64,000 nucleotides of DNA, from positions 24,695,384 through 24,759,383 of the forward strand of contig OX388317.1 in NCBI GenBank assembly GCA_947579605.1, given 5' to 3'. Origin of the DNA: Athripsodes cinereus. Its lineage: Eukaryota > Arthropoda > Insecta > Trichoptera > Leptoceridae. Every line of letters starts with the position of its first letter. Position 1 is the stretch's first letter. Both the position numbers and the translations under genes were made by a program. Positions 834 to 62,361 of this stretch are shown one piece after another. The notes under the pieces are model-generated. The model did no database searches and was not told the DNA's origin. It saw only the letters and a list, made by a program, of their open reading frames with translations.

Positions 834-1084
834 GTGAGGAGATTGAGTTGAAATCCGGAACGAGACTTTACCTCTTAAATGGTTACACGTACAACAGGCA
901 GATCAGTTTGAGTCAGAATAGAGTAAGATGGAAATGCTCCTCCGCAGTAAATCACTGCACAGCCTGCATTCATACGAGGAATGATAAAATTATATTTGTG
1001 AGGATGACGCACAATCACAAGAAACCACGACTTATTAAAGATGAAAATAACAAGTATGTCAAGTTAAGAGGTCTCGAACCCTAA
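834..1084 (+). CDS. mod(mdg4): mod(mdg4)-type alternative 3' exon 1, FLYWCH finger
   Basis: This terminal exon begins after TTTTGTTTTAG (AG at 832-833) and encodes 83 residues, counting the split first codon (G if the donor ends in G). The finger is C35-x6-C42-x17-H60-x-H62, with NGYTYNRQ before it and VRWKC at the Trp-Cys core. The usual Phe-Ile near the exon start is replaced by EIEL, and LLMI is replaced by LYLL, so it is one of the more divergent cassettes. It ends VKLRGLEP-stop. In mod(mdg4) proteins such a C-terminus replaces those of other isoforms behind a shared BTB N-terminus and sets chromatin targets or partners. FLYWCH identity is seen directly; the mod(mdg4) assignment is inferred from the array. 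Confidence 0.82.
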
Positions 1085-2733
1085 GAGGTCAGGAATCCTA
1101 AACGATTATTTAGATTTGGTACTTGGAGTTGCCTGCAATAATTTTTGGGCCCGGTATTTCAACGTGCCCTTAAGGTTACCTTTATCTTTAATAGACGCGG
1201 CTGATAAGTTAAAATAGTAAAGTGCAGTGCAATCATGTGTAGAAAAAATCGTTTTTTTTTTCAAAGCCAAATATTTTTACTATGGAAAAAGTATACATTT
1301 AACAATAATAATCATTTCTTTTTAAATATACAGTAAAAGATAATTAATTCCCTCAAATTTGAGCAGAGCTTGTGCTTTGAGAGATAGTTTCATTATTATT
1401 TACACCTATATTTATTTAGAAAACAATGGAGTAGAATTGCTCTTCGTTACCCACCTTGAACGCTTTAACCTCAGGCCCTGATTGATATCTCAAAAATCGG
1501 AAAGCTTTTATTTATCCATACTTCGACTGCATTACATATTTTCGAATGATCGCTGATTTAGGAATAAGATAAAAAAGTCTTATTGAATTTATAAAGGGAG
1601 TGCGCCGCTTCAACGCTACTCCTACGAAAGAATCGCTGGTGATCCTAAAGTCCACTCTAACACAATTATTTATTTAACTTACCCCTAATATTTTAGATCT
1701 AAATGTATAGAATAAATAGTGACCGTTTTATAATATTTATTAAAATTGTGTTGATTTGCAGGCAAATTTGATAAAAATGATAAGCGAAATGAAAATATCA
1801 TTACATATTGACTGGTAGGTATCACTGAGGGTCACTTTATCTGTCCCTAATATTTAGGTGTAAAGTAATTGTTATAAAATATGAAATTGGTGAAGTTAGG
1901 GTAGCCCTCAGAATAAAGCCACCCTAAAGGCATGTTGAAAAATTGGGTATTAGCAGGTGCCAAGATGGATTATTAAAATATAATTATATTTTAATTAATA
2001 GATATAAGATGCAATTTAATGTAAGAAAATGTATATGTGAATGAAATGTGTTGTATTATTAAAAATGTACTAAAATTTAAATGTTAAACGTAGTCTTAGT
2101 ACCATTTTACTGGATTTTCACATCTGCGTGACTGAAGATATTAAGAATATTACTCAATAGATACTTCATCGGCACAACCAACAGATTGTGCAAGATGTTA
2201 AGGAACAGAAATAGTGTCCCAATACTTAAAAGTCGGCTAAAGTTGGTTTAATTGCCCTTAACTCATTTCACTCATAAATTCGTTTCAAACCATCATGTGC
2301 GACATCTGTTTAGCTCACATGTGAACTAACAGCAACCACCTTTATGATTGCGTTCGAGACTTTTGGTAATTTATAGTTAATTGTCAACCTGAACAATAGA
2401 TGACACCAGAGAACGCTTGTGTATACCAGCCTTAGGCGATTCGTAAGCATCGAGACACTTGTCCTATTTCTAACTAAGTGGAGTTTGCACATACTGTCTG
2501 TTGTTCGAATAAAGTGTATGTTGAGTAATGTTTTTCTTTTTAATAAACTATAGTTTAATTTATATTTACCTTTAAAAAAATTATTATTTAAGTATGTATT
2601 CAAAATTAAACGCAATATAATGAGCGGTGAAATGCTATTTACAAAAACTCCACCCCAAAGATCTTTGAATGTGTAGTAAATATAATAAAGGAAACAAACA
2701 ATAATATTTTGTTAAAATGAACTTTCACAAAGT
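1085..2733. other. exon-free interval 1-2
   Basis: AT-rich intron-like DNA. The only recognisable content is an old inverted-repeat relic at about 2150-2560 (AAGAATATTACTCAAT, CAGCCTTAGGCGATTCGTAA). A related relic lies at 58430-58700. No FLYWCH core, splice-ready ORF or RNA gene was seen. Confidence 0.5.
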
Positions 2734-2912
2734 TCAAAAAAATAAAACAGGTGTTTTATTCTACTAAAGATTATATTTTGTGAGAGAGACGTCTTTCGTC
2801 TTATGAGGACATTGTCAATCACAATGATTGACAATGTCCTCATAAGACGAAAGACGTCTCTCTCACAAAATATAATCTTTAGTAGAATAAAACACCTGTT
2901 TTATTTTTTTGA
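2734..2912. mobile_element. MITE family M1, perfect 88-bp-arm palindrome
   Basis: Positions 2734-2821 and 2825-2912 are exact reverse complements around a 3-base loop. The arms hold AGAGAGACGTCTTTCGTC and end in AAAAAAATAAAACAGG. Related copies are at 14468-14635 (hairpin, diverged), about 9868-10000 and about 10530-10620 (half copies). The absence of any mismatch indicates a young insertion or recent gene conversion between arms. Confidence 0.88.
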
Positions 2913-3379
2913 TATGGAATTCTACTACCTTAACACCGACACAGTGAAGAAATTTCACAAAGTTATTGCGAATATCTGCCATCAATATTAATTATAATTT
3001 TAAATTAAGGCTTTAGTATTAGTGAATGTTTTTAGAATAGTAATTAATAACACGCATTTTACAATAAATTACTTTACTAGCATAAAAATTATGTTGTAGT
3101 TAAAATAAATTACTTTTACTTTATACAATGATCTTTTATTGAAATAAACATCAAATATTATATTACGATATAGGTACAGGTATATTGATCACCAAAAATG
3201 ACTACCAGAAATGGTTACCAGAAATTTTTGTTTGATCTATTCAATGCTTAAAAGGTCCCGTCAATTAGAAAGACTAAATAACAACCCGATTTTTTTTGGA
3301 TATTGTGAGATTAGCGATCTAAAAGAATGAGAGTGAACTCGTAGGTATGTTTTTATATATTTTCTGTTCTTGAAGGACA

Positions 3380-3888: not shown

Positions 3889-4139
3889 ATGTCGTCTCTT
3901 TCATACAAAACGGTAAAGGGACTATTCTTCTGATGCTTGAAGGGTATACATTCAGTCGACAGGCCAACTTGACAAAGGGAAGAATCAGATGGAAATGTTC
4001 GGCGAAGATGTCCACATGTTGCACAGCTTCTGTGCATACGTTGGAAAACAAACTCGTTTCAAGAATTAATTCGCACAATCATAATCCTCCGAGTTATCGT
4101 TTGACATCAAGTGGGGTTTTAGTCAGAAAGAAGACATAA
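3889..4139 (+). CDS. mod(mdg4): mod(mdg4)-type alternative 3' exon 2, FLYWCH finger
   Basis: The acceptor ATTTGCAG ends at 3888 and the exon encodes 83 residues, starting D-VVSFIQNGKGTILLM. The core is EGYTFSRQ followed by IRWKC. The second zinc cysteine sits in a Cys-Cys pair (STCCTA). Aligned on the invariant C-x17-H spacing, the finger is C37-x7-C45-x17-H63-x-H65, with C44 as a spare cysteine. The tail is basic (VRKKT-stop). An open frame continues upstream into the intron but has no family similarity there, so the splice site and not an upstream ATG defines the start. Confidence 0.85.
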
Positions 4140-7403: not shown

Positions 7404-7687
7404 CATCCTTTATTCAAGTAGCGAACGGAAGCGTTTTACTCATGATCGATGGCTACACATTCAGTAGGCATGTTCAAACACGAACGGGAAGGGCAAAGTG
7501 GAAATGTTCATCAAGAAAGAAAGGCTGTCTTGCCGCAGTTTACACCGTAAACAATAAGGTTGTGGGTGTTGTCAATGCACATAATCATGACACACCCCAC
7601 TTTATCGTAGATAAAACAGGAAATTATATCAAACATACTATTTATAAAAAAAGAACTAAAAAAAACCCACCGACTAGTGATTCATAA
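7404..7687 (+). CDS. mod(mdg4): mod(mdg4)-type alternative 3' exon 3, FLYWCH finger with basic tail
   Basis: Two AG acceptors lie nine bases apart (7393-7394 and 7402-7403), both in the common phase. The second fits the family best (A-SFIQVANGSVLLM); the first would add three residues (start 7395). The finger is C-x6-C (WKCSSRKKGC), then 17 residues to HNH. HNH is followed by DTPHF and not the usual PPP. The C-terminus is extended and basic (YKKRTKKNPPTSDS-stop), possibly a nuclear-localisation or DNA-backbone contact (inference). An AATAAA at 7941-7946 is a plausible polyadenylation signal about 250 bases downstream of the stop. Confidence 0.85.
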
Positions 7688-8713: not shown

Positions 8714-8949
8714 TGACATTTATCCAATCGAAAAAGGGCAAACCTCTTGTGATGGTCGACAAGTATACCTTCCGACGGCAACGCTCTACAGGGTTTGGGC
8801 GAGATAGATGGAATTGTTCAACAAACGGAAACAAAGGATGTAAAGCATCTTTGATCACACTGAATGATGAGATAATCTCCCTCCAGAATCATCACAACCA
8901 TGAACATCCAAATTTCTGTTATGTCAATGGACAATACGTCAGACTGTAA
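8714..8949 (+). CDS. mod(mdg4): mod(mdg4)-type alternative 3' exon 4, FLYWCH finger
   Basis: The acceptor CCGTTTTTTAG ends at 8713 and the exon encodes 78 residues, V-TFIQSKKGKPLVMV. It has the widest Cys spacing of the array, C-x7-C (WNCSTNGNKGC), with no spare cysteine. It then has 17 residues to HNH, followed by EHPNF in place of PPP. LLMI is replaced by LVMV and the aromatic core is DKYTFRRQ. It ends YVNGQYVRL with no extra tail. The sequence between exons 3 and 4 has no coding similarity, so this is a separate cassette. Confidence 0.85.
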
Positions 8950-11679: not shown

Positions 11680-11987
11680 GAAGCTACATACATTTACGCG
11701 GAGGGAATTTGTTATTAATGATAAACGGATTCACTTTTAGCAAACAGAAATTTATGCCTTGGTCAGGAAAAGAACGTTGGCAGTGCTCGTCCAGAAAGAA
11801 AGGATGCAATGCATATCTTCACGTCAAAGACAACATCATCACGTATCATGTCAAAGATCACAATCACCCCCCTCCTAAATATTCTCTTTTATCCACCGGA
11901 CATTATGCAAGATCGAGAGAAAAAATTGAAACACTTCCAGCTATGAATGGCGTTCCAGCTAAAATTATTAAAAAACAAGATAAATGA
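11680..11987 (+). CDS. mod(mdg4): mod(mdg4)-type alternative 3' exon 5, FLYWCH finger with long tail
   Basis: The acceptor TTACTTTCAG ends at 11679. With 102 residues this is the longest exon peptide in the array. It opens G-SYIHLRGGNLLLMINGFTF, and the loop before the Trp-Cys core carries a longer insert (KFMPWSGKERW). The finger is C-x6-C (QCSSRKKGC), then x17, then HNHPPPKY. After the finger comes a unique 24-residue, Lys-rich tail ending IIKKQDK-stop. A 203-bp palindromic MITE ends at 11600, only 79 bases upstream of the acceptor dinucleotide, so the branch-point region abuts transposon sequence. Confidence 0.87.
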
Positions 11988-14728: not shown

Positions 14729-15012
14729 TTAAATTCATCACCACGACGAACCAAAACAAATTGTTGATGATCAACGGCTACACCTATTGCAAGTGCTCTA
14801 AATTGTCAGGTGGAAGTATAAGTTGGAGATGTTCGTTAAGAAAAAAGTTCTGCTATGCGTCAGCCCGCACCAAAAATGATGTCCTAGTAATGGTTACCAA
14901 CAAGCACAATCATAAACCCATCCCATTTGTGAAGAACGAGAAAGGAGAGTATAAGAAATGTTCTACACGGAAATTCAAGAAGATGAAGTCATCGGAAGAT
15001 GAAGAAGATTAA
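14729..15012 (+). CDS. mod(mdg4): mod(mdg4)-type alternative 3' exon 6, FLYWCH finger with acidic tail
   Basis: The acceptor TTTGTTTCAG ends at 14728. The exon encodes 94 residues, V-KFITTTNQNKLLMINGYTY. Two additional cysteines occur just before the core (YCKCSK). The finger proper is WRC-x6-C-x17-HNH, followed by KPIPF. The C-terminus is unusual, changing from a basic run (CSTRKFKKMK) to an acidic end (SSEDEED-stop), a possible casein-kinase-2-like acidic patch (inference). A hairpin MITE (14468-14635) lies about 90 bases upstream of the acceptor. Confidence 0.87.
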
Positions 15013-17358: not shown

Positions 17359-17594
17359 TAACATTTATAAACACGATTCAAGGAAAGACATTGCTAATGG
17401 TGGAAGGTTATACATTCAGTTTTCAAGTGAAGATGTCACAAGGAAAAGAACGTTGGCACTGTTCAGGGCACAACCTGCGATGCACGGCTATTGCACACAT
17501 TCTGAATGGTCACGTTATACATTATGTTGGCAAACATAATCATGACCCACCTAGATATGTTAAAACCGGAAACGGGCGGTATTTAAAATTATAA
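17359..17594 (+). CDS. mod(mdg4): mod(mdg4)-type alternative 3' exon 7, FLYWCH finger
   Basis: The acceptor ATTTCTTTCAG ends at 17358 and the exon encodes 78 residues, V-TFINTIQGKTLLMVEGYTF. The finger is WHC-SGHNLR-C, then 17 residues to HNHDPPRY, ending GRYLKL-stop. It shares the SQGKERW segment with later exons. The second half of the loop is His-rich (HILNGHVIHYVGKH), so metal coordination should be assigned by alignment and not by counting histidines. A candidate AATAAA lies near 17689. Confidence 0.86.
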
Positions 17595-18768: not shown

Positions 18769-18995
18769 TATTTTTCATTGATACTACAGCTGGAAAAACA
18801 TTGCTGATGATAGACTCATACACATTCAACAAGAACACAGAGCTGACACAAGGCAAAATAAGATGGCAGTGTTCTACTAGACTTTGCGGTTCTTGGGCTC
18901 ACACGTATAACGGACATCTGCTAACTTCCAAACTAAAACATACACACTCTCCACCCAACTATGTGAAAACTCCTAAAGGCTATATGAAACTATAA
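18769..18995 (+). CDS. mod(mdg4): mod(mdg4)-type alternative 3' exon 8, FLYWCH finger (C-x4-C, SW subfamily)
   Basis: The acceptor TTATTTTTCAG ends at 18768. The exon encodes 75 residues, V-FFIDTTAGKTLLMIDSYTF. The first two zinc ligands are two residues closer than usual (WQCSTRLC, C-x4-C), and the second Cys is followed by GSWAH. The C-x17-H-x-H half is unchanged (HTHSPPNY). It ends GYMKL-stop. It is nearly identical to exon 9, including the intron just upstream, so the pair is a recent duplicate. Confidence 0.87.
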
Positions 18996-20980: not shown

Positions 20981-21207
20981 TATTTTTCATTGATACTGCA
21001 GCTGGAAAAACATTGTTGATGATAGACTCATACACATTCAACAAGAACAAAGATCTGACACAAGGCAAAATAAGATGGCAGTGTTCTACTAGACTTTGTG
21101 GTTCTTGGGCTCACACGTATAATGGACATCTGCTAACTTCCAAACTAAAACATACACACTCTCCACCCAAGTGTAGGAAAACTCCTAAAGGCTATGTGAA
21201 ACTATAA
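20981..21207 (+). CDS. mod(mdg4): mod(mdg4)-type alternative 3' exon 9, near-copy of exon 8
   Basis: The acceptor TTATTTTTCAG ends at 20980 and the exon encodes 75 residues. It differs from exon 8 at only a handful of positions: TTAG to TAAG, NTELT to NKDLT, PNYVKT to PKCRKT, and GYMKL to GYVKL. The zinc ligands (C-x4-C-x17-H-x-H) and the SWAH motif are intact. The PNYV to PKCR change removes an aromatic otherwise well conserved after the PP motif and adds a cysteine, so this copy may be diverging or relaxed. An AATAAA at 21398-21403 could serve as its polyadenylation signal. Confidence 0.86.
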
Positions 21208-23068: not shown

Positions 23069-23295
23069 CTCAATTTATCGTTACCTCACGCAAAAAGAAA
23101 CTTTTGATGGTAGACTCCTATACTTTTAACAAAAAATCAACATTAACTGGCAATAGAATCAAATGGCAGTGCTCTAGGAGACATTGCCCTTCCTGGATTC
23201 ATACGCATGACGGTCACGTAGTAGTGTACAAAAACCAACATAATCATCCACCCCCTAAATATATGGAAACACCTGCTGGATTTGTCAAAGTATAA
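23069..23295 (+). CDS. mod(mdg4): mod(mdg4)-type alternative 3' exon 10, FLYWCH finger (unit A, first exon)
   Basis: The acceptor TTATTTTCAG ends at 23068. The exon encodes 75 residues, A-QFIVTSRKKKLLMVDSYTF. The finger is WQCSRRHC (C-x4-C) with PSWIH following, then x17 and HNHPPPKYMETPAGFVKV-stop. It is the first exon of a two-exon block whose second copy starts near 25.95 kb, with exon 12 as its counterpart. Directly downstream a 164-bp short retroposon inserted with an 11-bp target duplication (23299-23309 and 23474-23484), starting within about 15 bases of the stop codon. Confidence 0.87.
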
Positions 23296-23309
23296 TTAAA
23301 TGCTTGATT

Positions 23310-23700: not shown

Positions 23701-23930
23701 CGACCTACATTGTCACTGTCAACGGCATAACACTGTTGATGGTTGACTCATACACGTTTAACAGAGAAAGAGGAGTGCTGGTCGGAGATAGAGTCAGATG
23801 GCGTTGCTCTACAAGGAATTGTTCTTCTTGGGTTCACGTATGCGGGGTCAATATAGTAGGAAAAAAACTCCAACATTTCCATCCACCGCCGCATTATGTT
23901 AAAACTACAAAAGGATATGTGAAATGTTGA
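23701..23930 (+). CDS. mod(mdg4): mod(mdg4)-type alternative 3' exon 11, FLYWCH finger (unit A, second exon)
   Basis: The acceptor TTGAATTTCAG ends at 23700. The exon encodes 76 residues, A-TYIVTVNGITLLMVDSYTF. The loop NRERGVLVGDRVRW is one residue longer than in its copy, exon 13. The finger is RCSTRNC (C-x4-C)-SSWVH-x-H. The second half contains an extra Cys (VCGVN) and the last pair is HFHPPPHY. It ends GYVKC-stop, where exon 13 ends GYVKF. Its 3' flank runs into a LINE fragment and then the Tc1-like transposon. Confidence 0.86.
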
Positions 23931-26245: not shown

Positions 26246-26472
26246 CTCAATTTATCGTTACCTCACGAAGCAAGAAACTTTTAATGGTCGACTCCTACAC
26301 TTTTAACAAAAACGCAATATTAATTGGCAATAGAATCAGATGGCAGTGCTCTACGAGATATTGCCCTTCCTGGGTCCATACAAGTGACGGTTACGTAGTA
26401 GCACACAAAAACCAACATAATCATCCACCCCCTAAATATATGGAAACACCTGCCGGATTTGTTAAAGTATAA
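26246..26472 (+). CDS. mod(mdg4): mod(mdg4)-type alternative 3' exon 12, FLYWCH finger (unit B, copy of exon 10)
   Basis: The acceptor TTTAATTTCAG ends at 26245. The exon encodes 75 residues, A-QFIVTSRSKKLLMVDSYTF. Relative to exon 10 it has KKST to KNAI, IKW to IRW, SRRHC to STRYC and IHTHD to VHTSD. The zinc ligands, PSW motif and ETPAGFVKV end are unchanged. Conservative replacements plus an intact frame suggest both copies are under constraint. Its 3' flank lacks the retroposon found behind exon 10 and gives the pre-insertion sequence. Confidence 0.87.
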
Positions 26473-26651: not shown

Positions 26652-26878
26652 CGACCTATATAGTCACTGTCAACGGCATAACACTGTTGATGGTTGACTC
26701 ATACACGTTTAACAGAGAAAGAGTGCTGCTCGGAGATAGAGTCAGATGGCGTTGCTCTACAAGGAATTGTTCTTCTTGGGTTCACGTACTCGGTGTTAAT
26801 ATAGTAGGACATAAACTCCAACATTTCCATTCACCGCCGAATTATGTTAAAACTATAAAAGGATATGTGAAATTTTGA
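26652..26878 (+). CDS. mod(mdg4): mod(mdg4)-type alternative 3' exon 13, FLYWCH finger (unit B, copy of exon 11)
   Basis: The acceptor TTGAATTTCAG ends at 26651. The exon encodes 75 residues, A-TYIVTVNGITLLMVDSYTF. It differs from exon 11 by a one-residue deletion (RERVLLG for RERGVLVG), VCG to VLG (losing the extra Cys), KKL to HKL, PPPH to SPPN and a final F for C. The finger is C-x4-C-SSWVH-x17 frame-HFH. It is separated from exon 12 by only 179 bases, the shortest exon-exon spacing in the array. A candidate AATAAA lies at 27110-27115. Confidence 0.86.
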
Positions 26879-28475: not shown

Positions 28476-28708
28476 CGCAGTTTATAACTACGTTAAAGGG
28501 CAAAAGATTGTTAATGATTGACTCTTATACATTCAGCAGAGCATCGATATTAACTGGAGATAAAGAAAGGTGGCAGTGTTCATCGTTGAAGAAGAAATGT
28601 CATACCTGGGCCCATATCAAAGACGATCGTGTTGTGTTGTTTACTGGAGCTCATAATCATCCACCTCCAAATTATATGAAGACGTCAAATGGATATGTTA
28701 AAATATAA
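28476..28708 (+). CDS. mod(mdg4): mod(mdg4)-type alternative 3' exon 14, FLYWCH finger
   Basis: The acceptor TGTTTTTCAG ends at 28475. A second AG at 28479-28480 would break the frame, so it is not the site. The exon encodes 77 residues, A-QFITTLKGKRLLMIDSYTF. It bridges two groups: spacing is the common C-x6-C (QCSSLKKKC), but the second Cys is followed by HTWAH as in the SW subfamily next door. The second half reads IKDDRVVLFTGAHNHPPPNY and it ends NGYVKI-stop. Confidence 0.87.
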
Positions 28709-29852: not shown

Positions 29853-30106
29853 TTCAATTGATAAGCACGGTGACTGGAACAACTTTATTGATGATTAATT
29901 CATTCACATTTAATAAACACAATCAAGTTGGCGGAAAAGAAAGATGGAGATGTGCATCGAAGAAGAGAAGGTGTAAGGCCACTGTATATGTTAAAGACAA
30001 TGTCGTCGTTAAAGGATCATTAATTCACAATCATTCACCACCGAGATATGTTCAAGTTGCCAGTGGAGCCTTCGTAAGAGTTTCATATAGTGGTGATATT
30101 GAATAG
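29853..30106 (+). CDS. mod(mdg4): mod(mdg4)-type alternative 3' exon 15, FLYWCH finger
   Basis: The acceptor TTATGTTTTAG ends at 29852. The exon encodes 84 residues, V-QLISTVTGTTLLMINSFTF. The finger is WRCASKKRRC (C-x6-C), very basic, then x17 and HNHSPPRY. The tail is VRVSYSGDIE-stop. The conserved Phe of F-I is Leu here. It is the last exon before the largest exon-free interval (5.97 kb), and its 3' flank carries the TTCCATG-type repeat cluster. Confidence 0.86.
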
Positions 30107-31872: not shown

Positions 31873-32409
31873 ATGAAGGGTCGCTTCAGATGTCTCTTAA
31901 AATATCGCGTCCTCCATTACAAACCAGAAATGGCAAGCAAAATTATTTATGCGATGGCCAAGGTGCACAATATTTGTATTATGAGGAATGATCCATGCCC
32001 AGATGAAAGTGGTAAGTTAAATAAAAGGAAAGTAAAAGAAAGATGTATAAATGTAATTAAGTCTAAGAGAAAAAAACATGCATTTATTTACTGTAAAAAT
32101 AATACAAATATAAACAAAAATAAAGCAAGATTTGTTATTTATTTACTTTTAACAAAAATAATACAAATCCAACAGTATAAAAAAGCAAAATATATTATTT
32201 ATTTACGTACATATCCAACAGTAATTGGATTCTCAATTAATGTCTTAACATCCATATCATGCTCACGTTACACACATTTAAATTATATAACTTTTTCAGG
32301 AACAGAAGAAGACCATGACGAAAATGTAACAACATCACCGGTCGACAATAATTTCCTTGCTGCAGGTCTCAACATTCGGAACAATTTAATCAGAAAATAT
32401 TTTAGCTAA
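31873..32409 (+). pseudogene. Harbinger (HARBI1-like) transposase C-terminal remnant with an intron
   Basis: The first exon reads MKGRFRCLLKYRVLHYKPE and then KIIYAMAKVHNICI, the signature end of the DDE_Tnp_4 nuclease (KGRFRCL...HN). Immediately upstream the same frame gives the expected ERCCGV and then meets a stop, so the catalytic N-terminal part is missing. A 288-base in-frame intron is suggested at 32012-32299 (GTAAGT donor, TTTTTCAG acceptor). It joins DES to GTEEDHDENV and the end IRNNLIRKYFS. It is a non-functional fragment. Confidence 0.75.
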
Positions 32410-36075: not shown

Positions 36076-36338
36076 TTGACTTTATTAATCTTGGAAACGG
36101 GCGCACTTTACTCAGGATAAATTCGTACACATTCAGCAAACACGTGAGGATAGGAGATAAGGAGAGATGGAGATGCTCCTCAGAGAAGAAGCACTGTAAA
36201 GCTATCGCCAATGTTATCGACCGTCGTGTCGTACATTTCACCGATCAACATGTCCATCCTCCGCCAAAATATCATTTGACGTCACAAGGATACTATAGAA
36301 TAAAAAGAGATAAAGAAGTACCTACTGTAAAAAGTTAA
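36076..36338 (+). CDS. mod(mdg4): mod(mdg4)-type alternative 3' exon 16, FLYWCH finger
   Basis: The acceptor CATTTTTTCAG ends at 36075. The exon encodes 87 residues, V-DFINLGNGRTLLRINSYTF. The normally invariant Met of LLMI is Arg, a single-base change (ATG to AGG). The finger is intact: WRCSSEKKHC (C-x6-C), then x17 and HVHPPPKYHL. The tail is Lys-rich (YYRIKRDKEVPTVKS-stop). It opens the second half of the array after the exon-poor interval and belongs to the KERWRCSS group. Confidence 0.86.
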
Positions 36339-38162: not shown

Positions 38163-38419
38163 GAAAATTTATTCAACTTGATAATCGAACCATTTTATTG
38201 ATGATCAACTCGTTCACATACAACAAACACATCAAAACTGGAGAAAAGGAGAGGTGGAGATGTTCATCGCATGGTTGTAGAGCCATTGCATTTGTGGTTG
38301 AGAATCAAGTTGTTCATTATACAAAAAATCACACACATAAACCTCCAACTTTAGTGAGAACACCACAAGGATATTATCAAAAAATTAAATGTAATAATAT
38401 TTTGTTTCCGAAGAAATAG
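38163..38419 (+). CDS. mod(mdg4): mod(mdg4)-type alternative 3' exon 17, FLYWCH finger (shortened Cys loop)
   Basis: The acceptor TGATCTTTTTAG ends at 38162. The exon encodes 85 residues, G-KFIQLDNRTILLMINSFTY. It is closely related to exon 18 (KHIKTGEKERWRCSS shared) but has lost two residues between the cysteines (CSSHGC versus CSSQLKGC). It therefore has C-x4-C spacing independently of the SW subfamily. HTHKPPTLV follows. The tail is KIKCNNILFPKK-stop. A MITE hairpin (37915-38053) lies about 110 bases upstream. Confidence 0.87.
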
Positions 38420-40157: not shown

Positions 40158-40414
40158 GAGAATTTATTCAACTGGACAACGGAAGCACTTTGTTGATGAT
40201 CAACTCGTTCACATTTAGCAAGCACATTAAAACTGGAGAAAAGGAACGTTGGAGATGTTCATCACAGTTAAAAGGATGTAAAGCCATTGCATATGTGATT
40301 GATAATCATATTGTTCATCATACAGCTAGTCATGCACATCCGCCTCCCACTTTGATGAAAACATTCCAAGGGTATTATAAGAAGATAAAGGGTTTTAATG
40401 TCCCCCCTCAATAA
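40158..40414 (+). CDS. mod(mdg4): mod(mdg4)-type alternative 3' exon 18, FLYWCH finger
   Basis: The acceptor TTATATTTTTAG ends at 40157. The exon encodes 85 residues, G-EFIQLDNGSTLLMINSFTF. The finger is WRCSSQLKGC (C-x6-C) and x17 through a His-rich stretch (NHIVHHTASHAH) to HAHPPPTL. It ends KKIKGFNVPPQ-stop. It is the paralogue of exon 17 by sequence and position. A candidate AATAAA at 40500-40505 lies about 85 bases past the stop. Confidence 0.87.
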
Positions 40415-41404: not shown

Positions 41405-41673
41405 CTTCATATATAGTGACTGTTTCTGGGAAGAGATTACTAATGGTCAATTCGTTTACATATAATAAACATTTTCAAAATGGTGTAGATGTGAAATGGA
41501 GGTGCTCTTCTCAAAGTAAAGGTTGCAAGGCGCGAGTCCAGGTGATAGATGATAAGATTGTGAAAATGTCTAATGAACACTTTCATCCACCACCAAAGTA
41601 CAGACTATTAAGTTGTGGGAAATATATTAATCTCTTCAGACCTGGTGTCCATTCCAATGGACATAGATTTTAG
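41405..41673 (+). CDS. mod(mdg4): mod(mdg4)-type alternative 3' exon 19, FLYWCH finger
   Basis: The acceptor TTTTTATTTCAG ends at 41404. The exon encodes 89 residues, A-SYIVTVSGKRLLMVNSFTY. The finger is VKWRCSSQSKGC (C-x6-C), then x17 and HFHPPPKYRL. A distinct tail follows (INLFRPGVHSNGHRF-stop). Its start (SYIVTVSG) resembles exons 11 and 13 more than its immediate neighbours, while the core matches the local KxRWRCSS group. This hints at exchange between cassettes. AATAAA occurs near 41955. Confidence 0.86.
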
Positions 41674-42922: not shown

Positions 42923-43204
42923 AAAACTATGAATATTGGATAATCAACAGCTGTAAAAAGGTGGTTGCTATTTGTTGGTGTACGTACTCAACAGATGTTG
43001 AACAGAACACATTATTAAAACTATGAATATTGGATAATCAACAGCTGTAAAAAGGTGGTTGCTATTTGTTGGTGTACGTACTCAACAGATGTTGAACAGA
43101 ACACATTATTAAAACTATGAATATTGGATAATCAACAGCTGTAAAAAGGTGGTTGCTATTTGTTGGTGTACGTACTCAACAGATGTTGAACAGAACACAT
43201 TATT
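42923..43204 (+). repeat. tandem repeat, three copies of a 94-bp unit
   Basis: Copies start at 42923, 43017 and 43111 and each begins AAAACTATGAATATTGG and ends ACACATTATT. By eye the copies are identical, which implies very recent amplification or an assembly-level expansion. There is no coding similarity to the exons. It lies between exons 19 and 20. Confidence 0.9.
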
Positions 43205-43907: not shown

Positions 43908-44161
43908 GAAGGTTTATTAGTTTTGAAAATGGAAAAACTTTGTTGTTAATTGATTCATTCACATTTAGCAGACATGTCATATTAGGAGTAAAGGAGCGAT
44001 GGAGATGTTCTTCACAGAAGAAAGGATGTAAAGCCATCGCTCATGTTATCAATAATCAAATTGTTTATTATACAACTAATCACATACATCCACCTCCTAA
44101 ATTATTTATAACAAATGAAGGACATTATAAAAAAATCAATTTGCATTATACGACCCATTAA
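43908..44161 (+). CDS. mod(mdg4): mod(mdg4)-type alternative 3' exon 20, FLYWCH finger
   Basis: The acceptor TTATTCTTTTTAG ends at 43907. The exon encodes 84 residues, G-RFISFENGKTLLLIDSFTF, with Leu replacing Met in LLMI. The finger is ERWRCSSQKKGC (C-x6-C), then x17 and HIHPPPKLF. The tail is KKINLHYTTH-stop. It is close to exons 17 and 18 (G-xFI start, KAIAxVIxNxIVxxT segment), marking 36-44 kb as a local duplication series. Confidence 0.86.
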
Positions 44162-46298: not shown

Positions 46299-46543
46299 TT
46301 AAATTCATCAAACTTACTACCGGAAGGACCTTGTTAATGATAGACCGTTATACATTTAGCAAACAGATGTTTGTTGGAGGAAAAGAAAGATGGAAATGTT
46401 CATCTCAGAAGAGTGGATGTAGATCTGTAGCATATATCAAACAGAACTGTCTTGTGAATTACATAAATGTTCATGATCACAAACCGCCAGGATACGTCAA
46501 GTGCAAATCAGGAATTTATAGAAAATGTAAACATGCAAAATGA
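46299..46543 (+). CDS. mod(mdg4): mod(mdg4)-type alternative 3' exon 21, FLYWCH finger
   Basis: The acceptor TTATTTTATAG ends at 46298. The exon encodes 81 residues, V-KFIKLTTGRTLLMIDRYTF. The finger is ERWKCSSQKSGC (C-x6-C), then x17 and HDHKPPGY. The end is cysteine- and lysine-rich (VKCKSGIYRKCKHAK-stop), giving two further cysteines after the finger. AATAAA candidates lie near 46729 and 46886. Confidence 0.86.
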
Positions 46544-47782: not shown

Positions 47783-48015
47783 TTCAATACGTACAATCGA
47801 TGAGAAACAAAACACTGCTGATGATCAATTCATTTGCATTCAACAAACATTGTATTATTAATGGTAGACAAAGATGGACGTGTAATTTTAAGTCAAAAGG
47901 GTGCAAGGCCTCAGCTTACGATTTGGACGGTCGAGTACTCAAATTCACAACAAATCACAATCATGCTCCGCCGAAATATAAACATGTCAAAGGATATCAC
48001 ATTCTGGAAAAATAA
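47783..48015 (+). CDS. mod(mdg4): mod(mdg4)-type alternative 3' exon 22, FLYWCH finger
   Basis: The acceptor TTATTTTCAG ends at 47782. The exon encodes 77 residues, V-QYVQSMRNKTLLMINSFAF. It has Ala in place of the Thr of (Y/F)T(F/Y), and NF instead of SS after the first zinc Cys (WTCNFKSKGC, C-x6-C). x17 and HNHAPPKYK follow and it ends YHILEK-stop. It is divergent but the ligands are complete. The last third of the coding sequence has been tandemly copied downstream (48041-48310). Confidence 0.85.
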
Positions 48016-48040
48016 TCAGACTACGTGATCAAATTCACAA

Positions 48041-48313
48041 GTACTCAATTTCACTAGCAATCACAATTATGCTCCACCGAAATATGCACATGTCAAAAGA
48101 TATCACATTCTAGAAAAATAATCAGACTACGTTATCAAATTCACAAGCAATCACAATCATGTCCCACCAAAAAAAACGTGTCAAAGAATATCACATTCTA
48201 GAAAAGTAATCAGACTACGTGATCAAATTCACAAGTACTCAAATTCACAAGCAATCACAATCATGCTCCACCGAAATATACACACATGTCAAAGAATATC
48301 ACATTCTAGATAA
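48041..48313 (+). repeat. mod(mdg4): three degenerate tandem copies of the exon 22 3' end
   Basis: After the exon 22 stop, the segment containing AATCACAATCATGCTCC, AAATATACACATGTCAAAG and ATATCACATTCTAGAAA recurs three times, at about 48041-48145, 48146-48233 and 48234-48313. These copies include the HNH-PP region and the C-terminal codons plus about 35 bases of 3' flank, but lack the acceptor and the cysteine half. They cannot encode a finger and look like unequal-exchange debris. In the copies CTGGAA has become CTAGAA. Confidence 0.85.
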
Positions 48314-48999
48314 ATAATTCTCATACAACATTTACTATTGAATTGAGTTATTAATGAGCTATTTACTATGTTGATTACTATTTGATATAAGGTTTGTTTG
48401 CGACCGGTTTCGGTACTTGCACATACCATTGTAAATAGACAGCTATTGAAACTGGGCGCTGATAAATCTATCATAATGTTATAATTAACATATTTTGTAT
48501 GTAACAAACTCATTTTTTTAATTATTATGAATTCGGCCTGGATAATCTCAAAAAGTATGTATGAAAGTTTCATTAAAATAAAACAATTTAATCGAAATAG
48601 TTCGTTTTTATTTCAGAATTTGAACATACTAAACATTCAAAATTCATCCCTATTAGCTAGTTTATTATTTTTTGTTTGGCGTATTTCATGTACTTGTATG
48701 ATAGCTTATTCGAATGAACTCTGCAATTTTGTATGACAGTTTCAATAAAAGAAAAACTTCAATCAAAGAAACTCGTGATTTTATTTCTGAATTTAAACCT
48801 AGTTTTCATCTTAATTCATCCCATCCCGAGTAAACACACTATTTTTATTTCTAATAAATATTGATAGAGGTCAACTTCTACACTTCTATCAGCCTACACT
48901 TGGAAGTATCGAGCATGTGGTATCCTCACTAGGTATTCTGTAGCAATACCTACTCATGAATCTGTCATTGGGGTTTTTAATAGAGAAAATCGGAATCTT

Positions 49000-49356: not shown

Positions 49357-49589
49357 ATGGGTTTATAAACACTGTTAACGGTACGAGATTGCTCATGTTG
49401 AAGTCATTCACATACAACAAACATCATTTTGTCAAAGGTAAAGAAAGGTGGAGATGTTCATCTCGTCTTAAAGGATGCAAAGCCAGAGTTCTTGTGAAGG
49501 GTGATCAGATTGAGAACTGCATCAAGGAACACAATCATTCTCCACCAAAGTATATGAAGTTGTCTAGTGGATATTATATGAAATTGTGA
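49357..49589 (+). CDS. mod(mdg4): mod(mdg4)-type alternative 3' exon 23, FLYWCH finger
   Basis: The preferred acceptor is CAAATATTTCTAG, ending at 49356. The exon encodes 77 residues, D-GFINTVNGTRLLMLKSFTY. An earlier AG (49334-49335) is also in the common phase and would add seven residues. The finger is ERWRCSSRLKGC (C-x6-C), then x17 and HNHSPPKY, ending SGYYMKL-stop. AATAAA at 49703-49708 is a good candidate polyadenylation signal. It pairs with exon 24 by the SSRLKGCKA core. Confidence 0.87.
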
Positions 49590-50251
49590 TTACTTAGCTA
49601 AAACTGTGAAACTTTATAACAACTAACTTTACAAAATTGTCAAAACTTTGTAATTCTAATGTTTGTACATTTACAGAATGAAAATGCATGATTACAAATA
49701 TCAATAAACACAGAGGACTCTTGAGAATGTCAAACTGAGCTTTTGACGAAAGCGCTCGAGTTTTATTAAAAAAAATTAGTGAAAAATTATCTGTGTTTAT
49801 CAATATTAATATTTGCTTAGATTTAATTTAATATTTGCTAATTTTGTTTAAATTCCTAGAAAAGTTAAGTTTTTAAAGCACTTATTAATAAAAATAATTT
49901 ATTTTTATGGTTGAAATGTGTCACTAGCATTATTCTTTTTAAAATTCTATTATTTTTTGGATGAGTCATCGGTTTTTTACCATTTAATGGTGGTTTTATT
50001 TCAACTACCAACATTAATGAATCTTGATAGCCCATTATGAGATGCCCCTTAATGAATGAAATTCTCTTTTTTGTTTTGTTTTGTAAATATTGGTGTAATT
50101 ACTTTAATATTTATTTATTTTTTTGTTGTCCTCACAAAAAAAAATACTTGATTTAAATCATTTTCATACATTTTGTTAAGGGTTTCTATACTAATGGCCT
50201 AACTGTATGTATAAAACTGTTACAGATTATTCCAAAGCAATTACAACTTAT

Positions 50252-50627
50252 ACTTCCTAAATAAACATATTCGTCCACTTGCTCCAAACATTCATTTCCA
50301 ACCTTTATTTCACACATTGTTCTTTCACTCTCTCTTTCAAATACCATCACTTTCGTCTTTGTCACATTCATTTTCATCCCATTCATACTGCAACTTTCAT
50401 ATACAACTGACACAATCTTTTGTAAATCACTTTCACTCTCAGCCATTAATACCAAATCATCTGCATACATCAACGCATTCACACGGTTTCCATTCAGTTC
50501 AATGCCAACATCCATCTCTTTCAAAGGACGCATACAGTAGTCGAAAAAAAGGTTGAACAGCCATGGAGACATGACACAACCTTGCTTCACTCCTTTGGTG
50601 AGGACAAACCACTCGGAGAAGGCGTTA
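50252..50627 (-). pseudogene. LINE reverse transcriptase fragment (inverted 5' part)
   Basis: The minus-strand frame reads NAFSEWFVLTKGVKQG, SPWLFNLFFDYC and then LMYADDLVLMAES, with the YADD catalytic motif of reverse transcriptase. It continues through VYESCSMNGMKMNVTKTK to VDEYVYLGS. The N-terminal RT motifs, any endonuclease and the 5' end are absent, so this copy is dead. The open frame on this strand extends past 50627 only by chance. Confidence 0.88.
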
Positions 50628-52046
50628 TTAAGGGATGGTAGGTACGAAAGGGACATTGAAAAAAGAAAGGTGGCTGGTGCGAGAGTGAACGGTGCACTCC
50701 GAGCTATTGTTAGCAATAGCAATGTCTCGAACATGGCTAAAATGCTGGTGCACAACGCCATCCTCGTACCGACACTGATGTATGCAAGCGAGACTTGGAC
50801 ATAGCTGAAGAAGGACGAGAGTGGAATAAATGCAGTGGAGATGCGATCACTGAGAAGAATGGTAGGTAAAACATTGCGTGATAGAGTAAGAAATGAGGAT
50901 ATTAGAAGAATGAGTGGATGCAAGAGGAGTGTTTATTTATTTAACTTCTTTACACGGCAAAGCCTTTTACATGTTGAACAATAAAATAATAATAACAATT
51001 AAAACAATTTGACAGACGAAGACATTATACAGTTACAGTTTCATGCAAATAAATTAATGAAAAAAAGATATATATAATCTAAAACAAACTTCACATGCAG
51101 GTACAAAAGATTAATTGAATTTAAAATGATTTAAGACAAACAAAAAAATATATATATATACAACAAATGAGTGTGATTTATCAATAAAAATTAAAATATG
51201 TATACCTAGGACTAAAAATAAATTGTCAAAAGAAAATATTGTCAATTATAGTTTTAGAATCAAGAAATAAAATAGTCAATTTCGAAAAAAGTATGGTCAA
51301 AATAGAAACACAAAATCTTGAATTGAATTAAACTGAAATTATACTAAATAATTTGGAAAAGAAAAAAAAAACAAAAATGTGATCGATAAATTATGAAGAG
51401 ACGAACAAAAAAACAAATTTCAATATCAATATTTGAATTATTTAAAATTAAGGATATTTATATGTAAGTAAAAACAAATTCTGGAATATTTCAAGGTCAA
51501 CACAATATATGCAATCAAACAATAATGATGTAAGTCTCGAACATGGCTAAAATGCTGGTGCACAACGCCATCCTCGTACCGACACTGATGTATGCAAGCG
51601 AGACTTGGACATAGCTGAAGAAGGACGAGAGTGGAATAAATGCAGTGGAGATGCGATCACTGAGAAGAATGGTAGGTAAAACATTGCGTGATAGAGTAAG
51701 AAATGAGGATATTAGAAGAATGAGTGGATGCAAGAGGAGTGTTGTTGATAGAATGCGTGTAAATAAATTGAGATGGTTTGGTCATGTGGAACGAATGGAT
51801 GGTGTAAGATTGACGAAGAGGGTGTATTTATCTGAAAGAGAGGGTGTGAGGAAGCGCGGGCGTCCGAGAACCACGTGGCTTAACCACGTGGATCAAATTC
51901 TCAAGGACGGTCGCGTGTTAAGTAAGAGGAATCGGCGTGCATGTATGAGAAACTGGATGAATGTAGAGGAAGCGAAAGAAGTATGTAAGGATAGAGCGAC
52001 ATGGCGTTCCGTTCTCTCTGCCTACCCCACCTGGGACACGGCGTGA
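50628..52046 (+). pseudogene. LINE ORF2 C-terminal half, interrupted
   Basis: The plus strand reads RDGRYERDIEKRK, NGALRAIVSNSNVS and LVPTLMYASETWT, followed by a TAG stop where Trp is expected. It then reads INAVEMRSLRRMVGKTL, and after the nested insertion continues RMRVNKLRWFGHVERMDG, RKRGRPRTTWLNH and NRRACMRNWM, ending TWDTA-stop. The RW-GHV-RM and GRPR motifs are typical of the C-terminal region of RTE-like LINEs common in insects. Because 210 bp are duplicated around the nested insertion, the segment from VSNMAKML to CKRSV occurs twice. Confidence 0.85.
50934..51533 (-). mobile_element. 600-bp AT-rich retroposon-like insertion flanked by a 210-bp direct repeat
   Basis: The insert is bracketed by apparently identical copies of 210 bp of LINE sequence (50724-50933 and 51534-51743). 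Its left edge, TATTTATTTAACTTC, is the complement of an AAATAAATA-type 3' tail, so it is oriented minus. No ORF is visible. If this is a target-site duplication it is exceptionally long; unequal exchange is the alternative. Confidence 0.75.
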
Positions 52047-52864: not shown

Positions 52865-53097
52865 TCAAGTATATATCTATCGGAGGCGGAAAGATATTGC
52901 TAATGATAGACCTATTCACATTCAACAAACATAACCTGTTCGCTGAGAGACAAACTTGGAGATGTTCATCTCGGCTCAAAGGATGCAAAGCTGTTGCCCA
53001 TATAAGGAATGACCATCTCGAGCAGTTTAGTGGTGACCATAATCACCCTCCACCTCAATATGTTAAATTATCTAACGGCAATTACGTCAAATTGTAA
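52865..53097 (+). CDS. mod(mdg4): mod(mdg4)-type alternative 3' exon 24, FLYWCH finger
   Basis: The acceptor TTATTTTTAG ends at 52864. The exon encodes 77 residues, V-KYISIGGGKILLMIDLFTF. The finger is QTWRCSSRLKGC (C-x6-C), then x17 and HNHPPPQY, ending NGNYVKL-stop. The Arg before Trp, kept in nearly all cassettes, is Thr here (ERQTWRC). A candidate AATAAA lies at 53433-53438. The LINE insertion lies between this exon and exon 23, its closest relative. Confidence 0.86.
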
Positions 53098-54916: not shown

Positions 54917-55158
54917 AAGCAAACTTTATTCGCACATCAAACGGCAAGAGATTGCTGATGATTAATTATTACACATACAGCAAACAAACAAATATGGCTG
55001 GAGGAAAGGAGAGATGGACGTGTTCGTCTCAGAAGAAAGGCTGTAATGCCATAGCACATACAATTTACGGCATGGTGGTCTATTCTACAAATTACCATAA
55101 CCATCCACCTCCTAGATATGTAGAGTCATCTGATGGAGTTTACATCAAAGTTTCATAG
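54917..55158 (+). CDS. mod(mdg4): mod(mdg4)-type alternative 3' exon 25, FLYWCH finger
   Basis: The acceptor is a NAGNAG tandem (TTTTCAGAAGC): AG at 54915-54916 gives E-ANFIRTS, and AG at 54918-54919 removes one residue, both in phase. The exon encodes 80 residues with NGKRLLMINYYTYSKQ. The finger is ERWTCSSQKKGC (C-x6-C), then x17 and HNHPPPRY. It ends VYIKVS-stop. It is a near-duplicate of exon 27, although exon 26 lies between them. Confidence 0.87.
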
Positions 55159-58784: not shown

Positions 58785-59017
58785 CTCAATTTGTATACAC
58801 TACAAAAGGTAACAGATTACTGATGATAAATTCTTACACATACAGCAAGAATGTCAATATGGTCGGAGGGAAAGAGAGATGGTGTTGCTCATCCCAGAAG
58901 AAAGGTTGTAAGGCTTCAGCGCACACCATAGATGGACTTGTCGTTTTTACCGCTAATCCTCATACACATCCACCACCTAATTATTTTATATCCAACGGAA
59001 TTTATATAAAACAATAA
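58785..59017 (+). CDS. mod(mdg4): mod(mdg4)-type alternative 3' exon 26, FLYWCH finger
   Basis: The acceptor TTTATTTTTTAG ends at 58784. The exon encodes 77 residues, A-QFVYTTKGNRLLMINSYTY. The loop NVNMVGGKERW marks membership of the exon 25/27 group. The finger is WCCSSQKKGC, with an extra Cys immediately before the first ligand (C-C), then x17 and HTHPPPNY. It ends GIYIKQ-stop. It was probably part of the same duplication series as exons 25 and 27. Confidence 0.87.
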
Positions 59018-60027: not shown

Positions 60028-60266
60028 TGGCAAACTTTATACGGACATCAAAAGGCAAGAGATTGCTAATGATTGAATATTACACGTTCAGCAAACAAAC
60101 AAATATGGCTGGAGGAAAGGAGAGATGGGCATGTTCGTCTCGAAGAAAAGGCTGTACTGCCATAGCACATACCTTTTATGACATGGTGATCTATTGCACA
60201 AATTACCATAACCATCCACCTCCTAGATATGTGGAATCATCCAATGGAGACTTTGTCAAAGTATAA
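60028..60266 (+). CDS. mod(mdg4): mod(mdg4)-type alternative 3' exon 27, FLYWCH finger
   Basis: The acceptor AAAATTTTCAG ends at 60027. The exon encodes 79 residues, V-ANFIRTSKGKRLLMIEYYTF. It shares the loop KQTNMAGGKERW with exon 25 and differs from it mostly by conservative changes (WTC to WAC, QKKGCNA to RRKGCTA, DGVYIKVS to NGDFVKV). The finger is C-x6-C-x17-HNHPPPRY. The similarity extends into the intron (TAATATAACA... before both acceptors), supporting a duplication of genomic DNA, not convergence. Confidence 0.87.
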
Positions 60267-62122
60267 TAAATATAATTTGTTGTTGAAGAACTATAAATGT
60301 TCTTGTTGAGATGCGACTCTTCAGAAAATTTTCCCTTCGACTTTCCCATTTCCCTTTCATATTAGCCACACTTTAATGTCTATGTATTTGTGTGTGCATA
60401 AGATTAATTTTATTAATTTTTTCGAATCTATACGATTTTTATTATCTTGCTTTTTGTTGATTTATTTGATTGTTTCATTTTTAGCTTAAGTTGATTCTTT
60501 ATCTTTACTGCATATTTATGAGTCACTTATATTATTTGTAATAATCACAATTATGTACTTTTATTTATTTCTATCGTTTTTGAGTTTTTATTCTTCTCTT
60601 GAATTTTGTATGTATGTACAAATACACATATTGTGCAGTCTGTAAATAGGTTAATATGATTTATATTGTTATATATTATTATATTTGTATAATACTTACG
60701 GATGTGCCAATGAAATAAATTAAAATCAAGAATAGTTGGCAAAACTTTAAGCGATGGGATTAAGAATGGTTGGCGAACGAAATGAATGGATGGATGCGTG
60801 GCGTCTGACGTCAGAAGTGGATAGTCTGAATGATTCACGAGGAAAAGAAATCAGTAAGGTTGTGTTAAAAGCTATTGAAAAGAATCGTTTGCAAAGCTTT
60901 GAGAGGTGGGGATAAAAATGTTGTAAAGATTAGAATAATGAGCAGATGCGTACTGTGTGAGGTATGAAATATTCTGAAAAACGATCTATATAATTATGAT
61001 ATATGTTATTATGCTTTTATTAATGTACATCAAAATTTATTCTTAAATCACGTATTTATTTCCTGACAGATATACCAATTGCGTACTAACTTTGTATTCA
61101 ATTCTTATTGAGAATATTTTAATATACTTCTTAATGAGAATATTTCAATAGAGGTTTTGTGGATTTTTTATTTTCAATTTTTTTATGAAGTGTTCATATA
61201 ATGTAATATCTTATTAATGTAAGAGGTGTAATCGCCGTTAATGATAGAAATATATTAATGATATGGAAGTATTCAAGGATGAAATTTTCTGTGTACTTTC
61301 CTAAGTAAAAGAGTGTGAGAAAATAAATGTATGATAGAAATATCTGCGTGTATTTATTTCTACATTACATCACAATAAATTATATTTAAGAGTCATCGTT
61401 TGATGTTGGTTAAATTATTCTTGAGTCGAAATTCGGGACACTGTAGGTATTAGTTTTAATTATGAGATAAACAATAAATAAAATAATACAAAGTTATCCA
61501 CGATTTTCATTTTAAGTTTTACCACTTTTTAATGAAATCTTGGAAAGTCATTGTCAAACTGTTTTTAATACATGCCGTGTTGTTACTTACAATATCATCA
61601 TCATCTCGCCTTTCAACTCTTAAACCAGTCTCCTCCATTCAGAGCGTCTGTGCGTCACTTGAGTCACCTCTTCCTACGACATTCCTAGCGCTCTGGATGT
61701 CGTAATCATACATGTTTCTTATGTCATTATTGTTTTAATTAAGGCGTAGTTTTTAAGTAATGACACAGCATGTAATAAAAACAGTTTGACAATGATTTTG
61801 TGAGTCGAAACCAGGTCACTCATTTATAAAAAAGTAGAAAAATATAAACCATAGGTGTTTTTTTTACATAAATTTTACAATTTCATCTTCAAATAAATCA
61901 ATAAACAAAAAAATTGATGTTGATTTTTTTTAAGGCATAATTGCCATCTACACTTCTCAGCATTATATAACCAGATAAATCTTCATATGATCAGTCATGA
62001 TCACACAAAAACTCAACAGTCTAATATCGAGAAAAATTCACCTGTATATTGAATACTTTAAAAAATCAACAATTTTTATTTTCCATAAATGTCTATTCAT
62101 GTAATTATCTTCATTGTTCTAG
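60267..62122. other. exon-free interval 27-28
   Basis: AT-rich. It holds the GAGCGTCTGTGCGTCA repeat (61600-61715, also nested at 45.6 kb), a GACCTGGTTTCGA-family fragment (about 61810) and a possible LINE remnant at 60740-60960. No exon core is seen. Confidence 0.45.
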
Positions 62123-62361
62123 CTCAATTTATTATCACAGTTCAAGGGACGACATTACTCATGATAGATTCTTTTACATTTAGTAAAAAGCATCAACCAG
62201 TTGCAAATAACAGGGAAATCTGGAGATGTTCATCACGATTTAAAGGTTGCAGAGCTATTGTGTTTGTCAATGGAGGACAAATCAATTGCCATTCGTTAGA
62301 ACACAATCATCAACCTCCTACATACATGCAAGTAGCCGACGGTCGTTACGTCAAATTGTAA
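62123..62361 (+). CDS. mod(mdg4): mod(mdg4)-type alternative 3' exon 28, FLYWCH finger (last in window)
   Basis: The acceptor TTCATTGTTCTAG ends at 62122. The exon encodes 79 residues, A-QFIITVQGTTLLMIDSFTF. The loop before the core is longer and atypical (KKHQPVANNREIW), with Ile replacing the Arg before Trp. The finger is WRCSSRFKGC (C-x6-C), then x17 and HNHQPPTY, ending GRYVKL-stop. An AATAAA starts about 20 bases after the stop (62381-62386), which would give a very short 3' UTR if used. Confidence 0.86.

What the first reader, a model, noticed from the sequence alone, without database searches (positions are those of the whole stretch)
834..62361. Phase-locked array of 28 alternative FLYWCH terminal exons in 61.5 kb
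Twenty-eight consecutive exons on one strand each have an acceptor, one FLYWCH finger and a stop. All 28 acceptors leave bases 2-3 of a split codon, so all are interchangeable behind one donor. Seen directly: acceptors, phase, C-x4-7-C-x17-H-x-H pattern. Established knowledge: this is the mod(mdg4) design. Inference: the array continues beyond the window and the total isoform number is higher.
Basis: partly seen in the sequence, partly recalled or inferred. Interest (0 to 1): 0.88.

Follow-up and report, generated by a model that had tools for sequence, protein, structure and literature searches.

The report
Giant mod(mdg4) alternative-exon array
The window is a slice of a moth-like mod(mdg4) gene in which one shared front half appears to be joined to any one of more than three hundred interchangeable zinc-finger tail exons spread over 2.4 million bases, far more than the few dozen described in other insects.

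Summary
All 28 exons are present, on one strand, each with one FLYWCH finger (28 of 28 by Pfam), its own stop and a phase-2 acceptor. The mod(mdg4) reading also holds and goes further, because the window's own genome is held. The shared 5' part lies 1.75 Mb upstream on the same strand: a BTB exon plus a 75-nt exon ending CAA-G|GTAGGA (splice sites predicted), the phase the 28 acceptors need. In all 120 listed relatives (of 1,760 found) the common part ends GDAQ and the next residue is V, G, D, E or A, i.e. a GNN codon. The array is much larger than the window: at least 337 FLYWCH units in two blocks of this chromosome (22.95-23.50 and 24.65-25.33 Mb), 320 on the donor's strand and 17 opposite. 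Of 114 units read, 111 are intact with an in-phase acceptor. Published counts found are 9-41 per species. Opposite-strand units and megabase distances argue for trans-splicing, as reported in flies and other Lepidoptera, but no RNA was available. The kind is known; the scale looks new. Function is inferred from Drosophila.

The parts
834..1084 (+). terminal exon 1: acceptor, FLYWCH, stop
3889..4139 (+). terminal exon 2
7404..7687 (+). terminal exon 3 (further in-phase AGs nearby, e.g. at 7395)
8714..8949 (+). terminal exon 4
11680..11987 (+). terminal exon 5
14729..15012 (+). terminal exon 6
17359..17594 (+). terminal exon 7
18769..18995 (+). terminal exon 8 (young duplicate of exon 9)
20981..21207 (+). 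terminal exon 9
23069..23295 (+). terminal exon 10 (duplicate of exon 12)
23701..23930 (+). terminal exon 11 (duplicate of exon 13)
26246..26472 (+). terminal exon 12
26652..26878 (+). terminal exon 13
28476..28708 (+). terminal exon 14
29853..30106 (+). terminal exon 15
36076..36338 (+). terminal exon 16
38163..38419 (+). terminal exon 17
40158..40414 (+). terminal exon 18 (used as reference; joined in silico to the donor, reads through to its stop)
41405..41673 (+). terminal exon 19
43908..44161 (+). terminal exon 20
46299..46543 (+). terminal exon 21
47783..48015 (+). terminal exon 22; its last ~100 bp is repeated in tandem downstream to about 48318
49357..49589 (+). terminal exon 23
52865..53097 (+). 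terminal exon 24
54917..55158 (+). terminal exon 25 (alternative in-phase AG at 54920)
58785..59017 (+). terminal exon 26
60028..60266 (+). terminal exon 27
62123..62361 (+). terminal exon 28

Best explanation
The 28 exons are alternative 3'-terminal (acceptor) exons of the mod(mdg4) locus of a moth or close relative. A single donor pre-mRNA supplies the BTB-containing common part from two coding exons 1.75 Mb upstream. Its last common exon ends in one base of a codon (G), and any of the acceptors, each starting with two bases of a codon, completes the codon (G+NN = V, G, A, E or D) and adds one FLYWCH finger and a stop. The window is about a twelfth of an array of at least 337 FLYWCH units in two blocks over 2.4 Mb. 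Shown from sequence: exons, phase, a fitting donor, both strands, intactness of the units read. Predicted: the donor's splice sites (read by eye, agreeing with relatives). Inferred: that joining is mostly by trans-splicing of separate donor and acceptor transcripts, and that each FLYWCH tail directs the shared BTB multimer to its own chromatin sites or partners.
For: Exons and phase. Pfam 28 of 28. Own-genome place. Only BTB match (E <= 0.001) between 22.9 and 25.4 Mb of that contig is at 22948666-22948947, just before the first FLYWCH units. Donor end and in-frame joint. A T as last donor base would make 13 stops among 111 units; A, C or G none. 120 of 120 listed relatives continue after GDAQ with a residue of a GNN codon. 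At least 337 units, 17 opposite. 111 of 114 units read are intact and in phase. Branch-point-like CTRAY ahead of the acceptor in 28 of 74 units against 12% of random stretches. Pooled dN/dS 0.45 in 7 independent close pairs. Lepidopteran mod(mdg4) trans-splicing, 14 of 18 isoforms tested by RT-PCR in Danaus confirmed: PMC4667647 section 8.
Against: No RNA evidence from this organism. Cis-splicing cannot be excluded for the 320 same-strand units. Three of 114 units read fail: 24664106 lacks the second His of HxH; 25211348 has only a weak in-phase AG (-0.6 bits; a better one 33 bp up is cut off by a stop); 24676236 has no near acceptor, though a good phase-2 AG (11.7 bits) lies 530 bp up its long frame. 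Three units of 25-35 bits were left out of the 114, one in phase by the near rule; one of them (23044090, the best Pfam match of the genome) has a phase-2 AG 248 bp up its frame. A FLYWCH frame at 24642748-24643389 (-), above the Pfam cut-off, was below my threshold, is uncounted, and has no good acceptor. No shared upstream motif was found, and poly(A) signals are not enriched (71 of 74 against 97% in random stretches). 20 of 120 relatives' tails lack C..C..HxH.
Confidence: 0.93

Rival explanations
1. Same locus, but the same-strand exons are reached by cis alternative splicing of one giant transcript that starts at the donor.
For: 320 of 337 units lie downstream on the donor's strand, and cis-spliced mod(mdg4)-like genes exist in a beetle, two Hymenoptera and Daphnia (PMC4667647 section 8).
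Against: It would need introns of up to 2.4 Mb. 17 units are on the opposite strand. A four-copy gene-like family sits on the opposite strand inside block B. About 1.15 Mb without a counted unit separates the blocks.
Confidence: 0.1
2. A cluster of independent small FLYWCH genes, unrelated to a common donor.
For: 33 of 111 intact units (4 of 28 in the window) have an in-frame ATG upstream of the domain in their frame.
Against: 24 of 28 window exons have no such ATG; acceptors are uniform in position and phase; a fitting donor lies on the same chromosome; the 120 listed relatives carry this kind of join.
Confidence: 0.03
3. Mostly dead copies left by runaway tandem duplication, with only a few dozen functional tails.
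For: The youngest duplicates (dS < 0.25) show dN/dS of 0.39-1.09; exon 22 is followed by decaying tandem copies of its end; a - strand piece at 25163287 looks like a fragment.
Against: 111 of 114 units read keep the ligands, an open frame and an in-phase acceptor. Pairs with dS 0.44-1.07 in the window and beside it give 0.21-0.49 where dN is clearly below saturation. Median pairwise identity is only 33%, so most intact copies are old.
Confidence: 0.07

Closest known systems
mod(mdg4) of Drosophila melanogaster (31 variants)
   Same: BTB-containing common 5' exons plus one of many terminal exons, most with FLYWCH; exons on both strands; trans-splicing (PMC12692577 passages; PMC9723646 passages).
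   Different: 31 tails there, at least 337 units over 2.4 Mb here; four common exons in the fly, two common coding exons found here (5' untranslated exons were not sought).
mod(mdg4)-like loci of Lepidoptera (Danaus 40, Plutella 41, Bombyx 9 combinations)
   Same: BTB exon 84-85% identical in the 120 listed relatives; same GDAQ+GNN joint; tails on both strands, over 550 kb in Danaus (PMC4667647 section 8).
   Different: About eight times more units than the largest count I found in print. 106 of 111 tails score higher against a neighbour here than against any of the 120 listed relatives' tails.
lola (BTB gene with alternative zinc-finger tails)
   Same: Trans-splicing of a common front part (PMC4667647 passages); BTB front part and many alternative terminal exons (recalled).
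   Different: As I recall it, lola tails carry classical C2H2 fingers, not FLYWCH; the donor here matches mod(mdg4)-type proteins.

Membership tests
mod(mdg4) locus | common 5' exons with an N-terminal BTB domain | tested here: met
   Pfam BTB E 3.9e-25; donor region read
mod(mdg4) locus | orthology of the common part to annotated mod(mdg4) proteins | tested here: met
   84-85% identity over 100% of the query to lepidopteran isoforms, some named mod(mdg4) (Aphomia), most named 'tramtrack, beta isoform'; no tree was built
mod(mdg4) locus | many alternative terminal exons, most with one FLYWCH finger | tested here: met
   28 of 28 in the window; 113 of 114 units read have C..C..HxH; tails without FLYWCH were not sought
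mod(mdg4) locus | all acceptors in one phase, matching the shared donor | tested here: met
   112 of 114 by best nearby AG; donor phase 1 ending in G
mod(mdg4) locus | tail exons on both strands | tested here: met
   320 on the donor's strand, 17 opposite
mod(mdg4) locus | mRNAs made by trans-splicing | not testable with these tools
   no RNA reads from this organism
mod(mdg4) locus | isoform-specific chromatin binding or insulator function | not testable with these tools
   seen here only for Drosophila
FLYWCH zinc finger (PF04500) | sequence match above Pfam cut-off | tested here: met
   28 of 28 match at E <= 0.001; scores were shown for four of them, all above the cut-off
FLYWCH zinc finger (PF04500) | FLYWCH fold | tested here: met
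   model of exon 18 only, pLDDT 90; best match 2rpr E 3.1e-4, TM 0.62
lola | terminal exons with C2H2 fingers (recalled) | tested here: not met
   the only Pfam family among the 28 exons is FLYWCH

The most novel reading that the evidence does not exclude
In this lineage mod(mdg4) has become an open-ended, fast-turnover repertoire of more than 300 chromatin-targeting tails behind one BTB scaffold. It grows by local tandem duplication and diversifies at one beta-hairpin of the finger (codons 20-27, picked after seeing the variability: dN/dS 0.85 against 0.40 elsewhere at similar dS), comparable in logic to KRAB zinc-finger clusters and possibly driven by transposable elements. It is assembled by trans-splicing across 2.4 Mb.
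Probability: 0.2. Interest if true: 0.88.

Novelty: new variant of a known kind. Interest (0 to 1): 0.66.

Why it matters
mod(mdg4) is the one intergenic trans-splicing case that a multi-order insect survey found conserved (PMC4667647), with a few dozen tails per species. A locus with at least 337 tails, nearly all of those read being intact and in phase, would be among the largest alternative-exon repertoires of any gene (recalled comparison). It would let one ask directly how one donor finds hundreds of acceptors, what sets the tail number, and whether it follows genome size or transposon load. It also suggests that annotated isoform numbers can be far too low: in the 120 listed relatives numbering stops at X50, which looks like a ceiling (inference).

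Tried and rejected
Rejected: chance pattern (28 of 28 Pfam hits on one strand); uncollapsed haplotypes (highest amino-acid identity between two intact units read is about 0.90); spread as a transposable element (17 equal-scoring dispersed FLYWCH copies exist elsewhere in the genome, but lie outside the array); exon-to-exon splicing (1 of 111 has a phase-1 GTRAG donor before the stop). Against a simple story: young copies evolve fast, but pooled dN/dS does not exceed 1 in the hairpin or the rest. The hairpin rests on 8 synonymous differences and was chosen after looking; its enrichment (21 of 107 replacements in 8 close pairs, recounted) uses pairs that share exons.

Led nowhere: upstream 8-mer counts gave no convincing shared element. 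Poly(A) signals are not enriched over background. The exon-18 tail found no full-length relative at E <= 0.001 (5 candidates). The four - strand ORFs inside block B have no Pfam hit above cut-off, and their model is poor (pLDDT 42). The paper on the fly's intronic trans-splicing element is not held, so the donor intron was not tested for it. The 1.15-Mb gap could not be read.

It saturates (128, 233, 280, 309, 317, 330, then 337). In the contiguous 259 kb the searches recovered 67 of 74 units read independently; in the other pieces 40 of 40, but those were picked where hits were known. So it is a lower bound of FLYWCH units, not of proven exons: 114 of them were read base by base, and their intactness may be biased upwards by that choice. 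From, 22 of 150 matches lie outside the interval and were dropped, 7 of 145.
Full report
What was claimed.

A six-frame scan finds the 28 C..C..HxH frames on the + strand at the stated places and only one unrelated-looking match on the other strand. Each exon has an AG acceptor a few bases before the domain that leaves two bases before the first full codon: 28 of 28 with acceptors chosen by eye and 28 of 28 by best score in the open frame, with a matrix trained on those same acceptors; a 190-bp search gives 27 of 28. All 28 match Pfam FLYWCH. Six alignment columns are invariant, including both Cys and both His. The predicted structure of exon 18 is confident (pLDDT 90), and its only match with E <= 0.001 in the PDB fold search is the fifth FLYWCH finger of human FLYWCH1, 2rpr.

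The donor. The window's genome is held without a name: 716 Mb in 160 contigs, the window being G000:C13:24695384-24759383. A BTB search gives 79 matches genome-wide. The only one between 22.9 and 25.4 Mb of this contig is at 22948666-22948947 on the + strand, next to the first FLYWCH units. Reading 10 kb there shows a start codon at 22948600, a 763-nt coding stretch with the BTB domain (Pfam E 3.9e-25) ending in a good donor (A|GTAAGT), and then a 75-nt exon (22949448-22949522) ending CAAG|GTAGGA. These splice sites were read by eye; the protein they give agrees with relatives across both joints. Spliced together they end with one base, G, of a codon. Joined in silico to exon 18 the frame runs through to that exon's stop. 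A final T would have made 13 stops among 111 intact units; A, C or G make none.

Independent support for the joint comes from relatives. The BTB exon finds 1,760 proteins at E <= 1e-10, of which the best 120 are listed. They are lepidopteran where an organism is named, 84-85% identical over the whole query, and mostly carry BTB plus FLYWCH (20 of 120 tails lack C..C..HxH). Most are named 'tramtrack, beta isoform', some 'mod(mdg4)' (Aphomia sociella), a few hypothetical. In 120 of 120 the common part ends GDAQ and the next residue is V (40), G (30), D (23), E (16) or A (11), i.e. always a GNN codon. So the predicted donor and phase are those of annotated moth and butterfly isoforms.

The array is far larger than the window. 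Six own-genome searches with the Pfam family and five different exons, merged with profile hits in pieces I read, give at least 337 distinct FLYWCH units between 22.953 and 25.333 Mb: 118 in block A (22.953-23.496 Mb) and 219 in block B (24.651-25.333 Mb), with no counted unit in about 1.15 Mb between; 320 lie on the donor's strand and 17 on the other. One more FLYWCH frame, above the Pfam cut-off but below my threshold, lies at 24642748-24643389 (-) and is not counted. In the 343 kb read base by base there are 114 units of at least 35 bits. 113 have C..C..HxH, 112 have an in-phase best nearby acceptor, and 111 pass everything. The failures are 24664106, 24676236 and 25211348. On recheck 24676236, and the left-out 23044090 (-), are longer exons with a usable phase-2 AG further up their frames (530 and 248 bp), while 25211348 has only a weak one.

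How it evolved. Among the 72 intact units of the contiguous 259 kb the nearest relative lies within two units for 33; permutation gives 3.9 on average and 14 at most. So the array grows by local duplication. The highest identity between two intact units is about 0.90 and the median 0.33, which speaks against uncollapsed haplotypes. 106 of 111 tails score higher against a paralogue here than against any of the 120 listed relatives' tails, although only 120 of 1,760 relatives were compared. Seven independent close pairs give pooled dN/dS 0.45: the exons are under selection as protein. The end of strand 3 and the turn after it (codons 20-27 of exon 18) are at 0.85 against 0.40 elsewhere with similar dS, and residues 22-25 take 21 of 107 replacements in 8 close pairs. 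The region was picked after seeing the variability and the 8 pairs overlap, so this is suggestive only.

How it works. Shown here: one BTB donor, hundreds of interchangeable tail units, both strands. Inferred: trans-splicing. The 17 opposite-strand units cannot be joined in cis, the window's exons lie 1.75 Mb from the donor, and a four-copy gene-like family sits on the opposite strand inside block B. Trans-splicing of mod(mdg4) is reported for Drosophila, Anopheles, Bombyx, Danaus, Plutella and Aedes, with 9-41 exon combinations and donor-acceptor distances of 0.95-1.28 Mb in what reads as Aedes (PMC4667647, sections 8 and 9 read). In the fly all mod(mdg4) mRNAs are said to arise by trans-splicing from alternative 3' exons with independent promoters (PMC12692577, passages). 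Tails give isoform-specific binding: the N and T isoforms have non-overlapping ChIP peaks (PMC9723646, abstract and passages), and the unique C-terminus of Mod(mdg4)-67.2 gives its link to Su(Hw) (PMC5666082, passages). That the moth tails do likewise is extrapolation.

Novelty. The kind is known. The largest count I found in print is 41. Searches listed no paper that, from its title, abstract start or the passages named, reports more; most subscription papers are not held. The scale, about eight times larger and in two blocks over 2.4 Mb, is what would surprise a specialist. Whether other Lepidoptera are as rich could not be tested; isoform numbers in the listing stop at X50.

Organism. The named relatives and the nearly equal distance to pyralid, tortricid, noctuid and nymphalid species (family names recalled) suggest a lepidopteran outside those groups, or a close relative; this is inference.

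Noticed in passing
window 47934-48318 (+): The last ~100 bp of exon 22, coding end and stop included, is repeated in tandem downstream of the exon.
   Followed up: partly
L017:3855-4721, L017:7326-8159, L018:8014-8859, L019:8145-9065 (-): Four tandem open frames of 278-307 aa, 23-53% identical to the longest, with only four matches in the genome, all on the opposite strand inside block B. Low-confidence helical model, no Pfam hit above cut-off; possibly insect chemoreceptors (recall, unproven).
   Followed up: partly
G000 contigs C1, C3, C6, C9, C10, C13:26086080, C14, C16, C19, C20, C23, C25 (17 places): Dispersed FLYWCH frames with identical score (56.6 bits), 16 of them 129 aa long, probably carried by a transposable element; separate from the array.
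   Followed up: no
G000:C13:19162374 (-) and 19173412-19175532 (-): A FLYWCH match 11 kb from a BTB match split in two on the same strand: a possible separate, ordinary BTB-FLYWCH gene.
   Followed up: no
L006:5660-6511 (+): The 284-aa frame of unit 24676236 has a long acidic and basic stretch before its FLYWCH finger and the letters GDAQ right before it, the same four that end the common part; coincidence or a retained piece of a donor-like join is open.
   Followed up: no
window 24687-25373 (-), 50186-50932 (-), 31852-32409 (+): Transposon remains between the exons: Tc3-like helix-turn-helix, reverse transcriptase, weak DDE_Tnp_4 match below its cut-off.
   Followed up: no
window 42923-43204: Three perfect copies of a 94-bp unit in tandem, between exons 19 and 20.
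   Followed up: no
L021:9094-9390 (-): The FLYWCH unit nearest the donor is on the opposite strand and has the best match among the listed relatives' tails (60% to P0079, Loxostege), a likely old member.
   Followed up: partly
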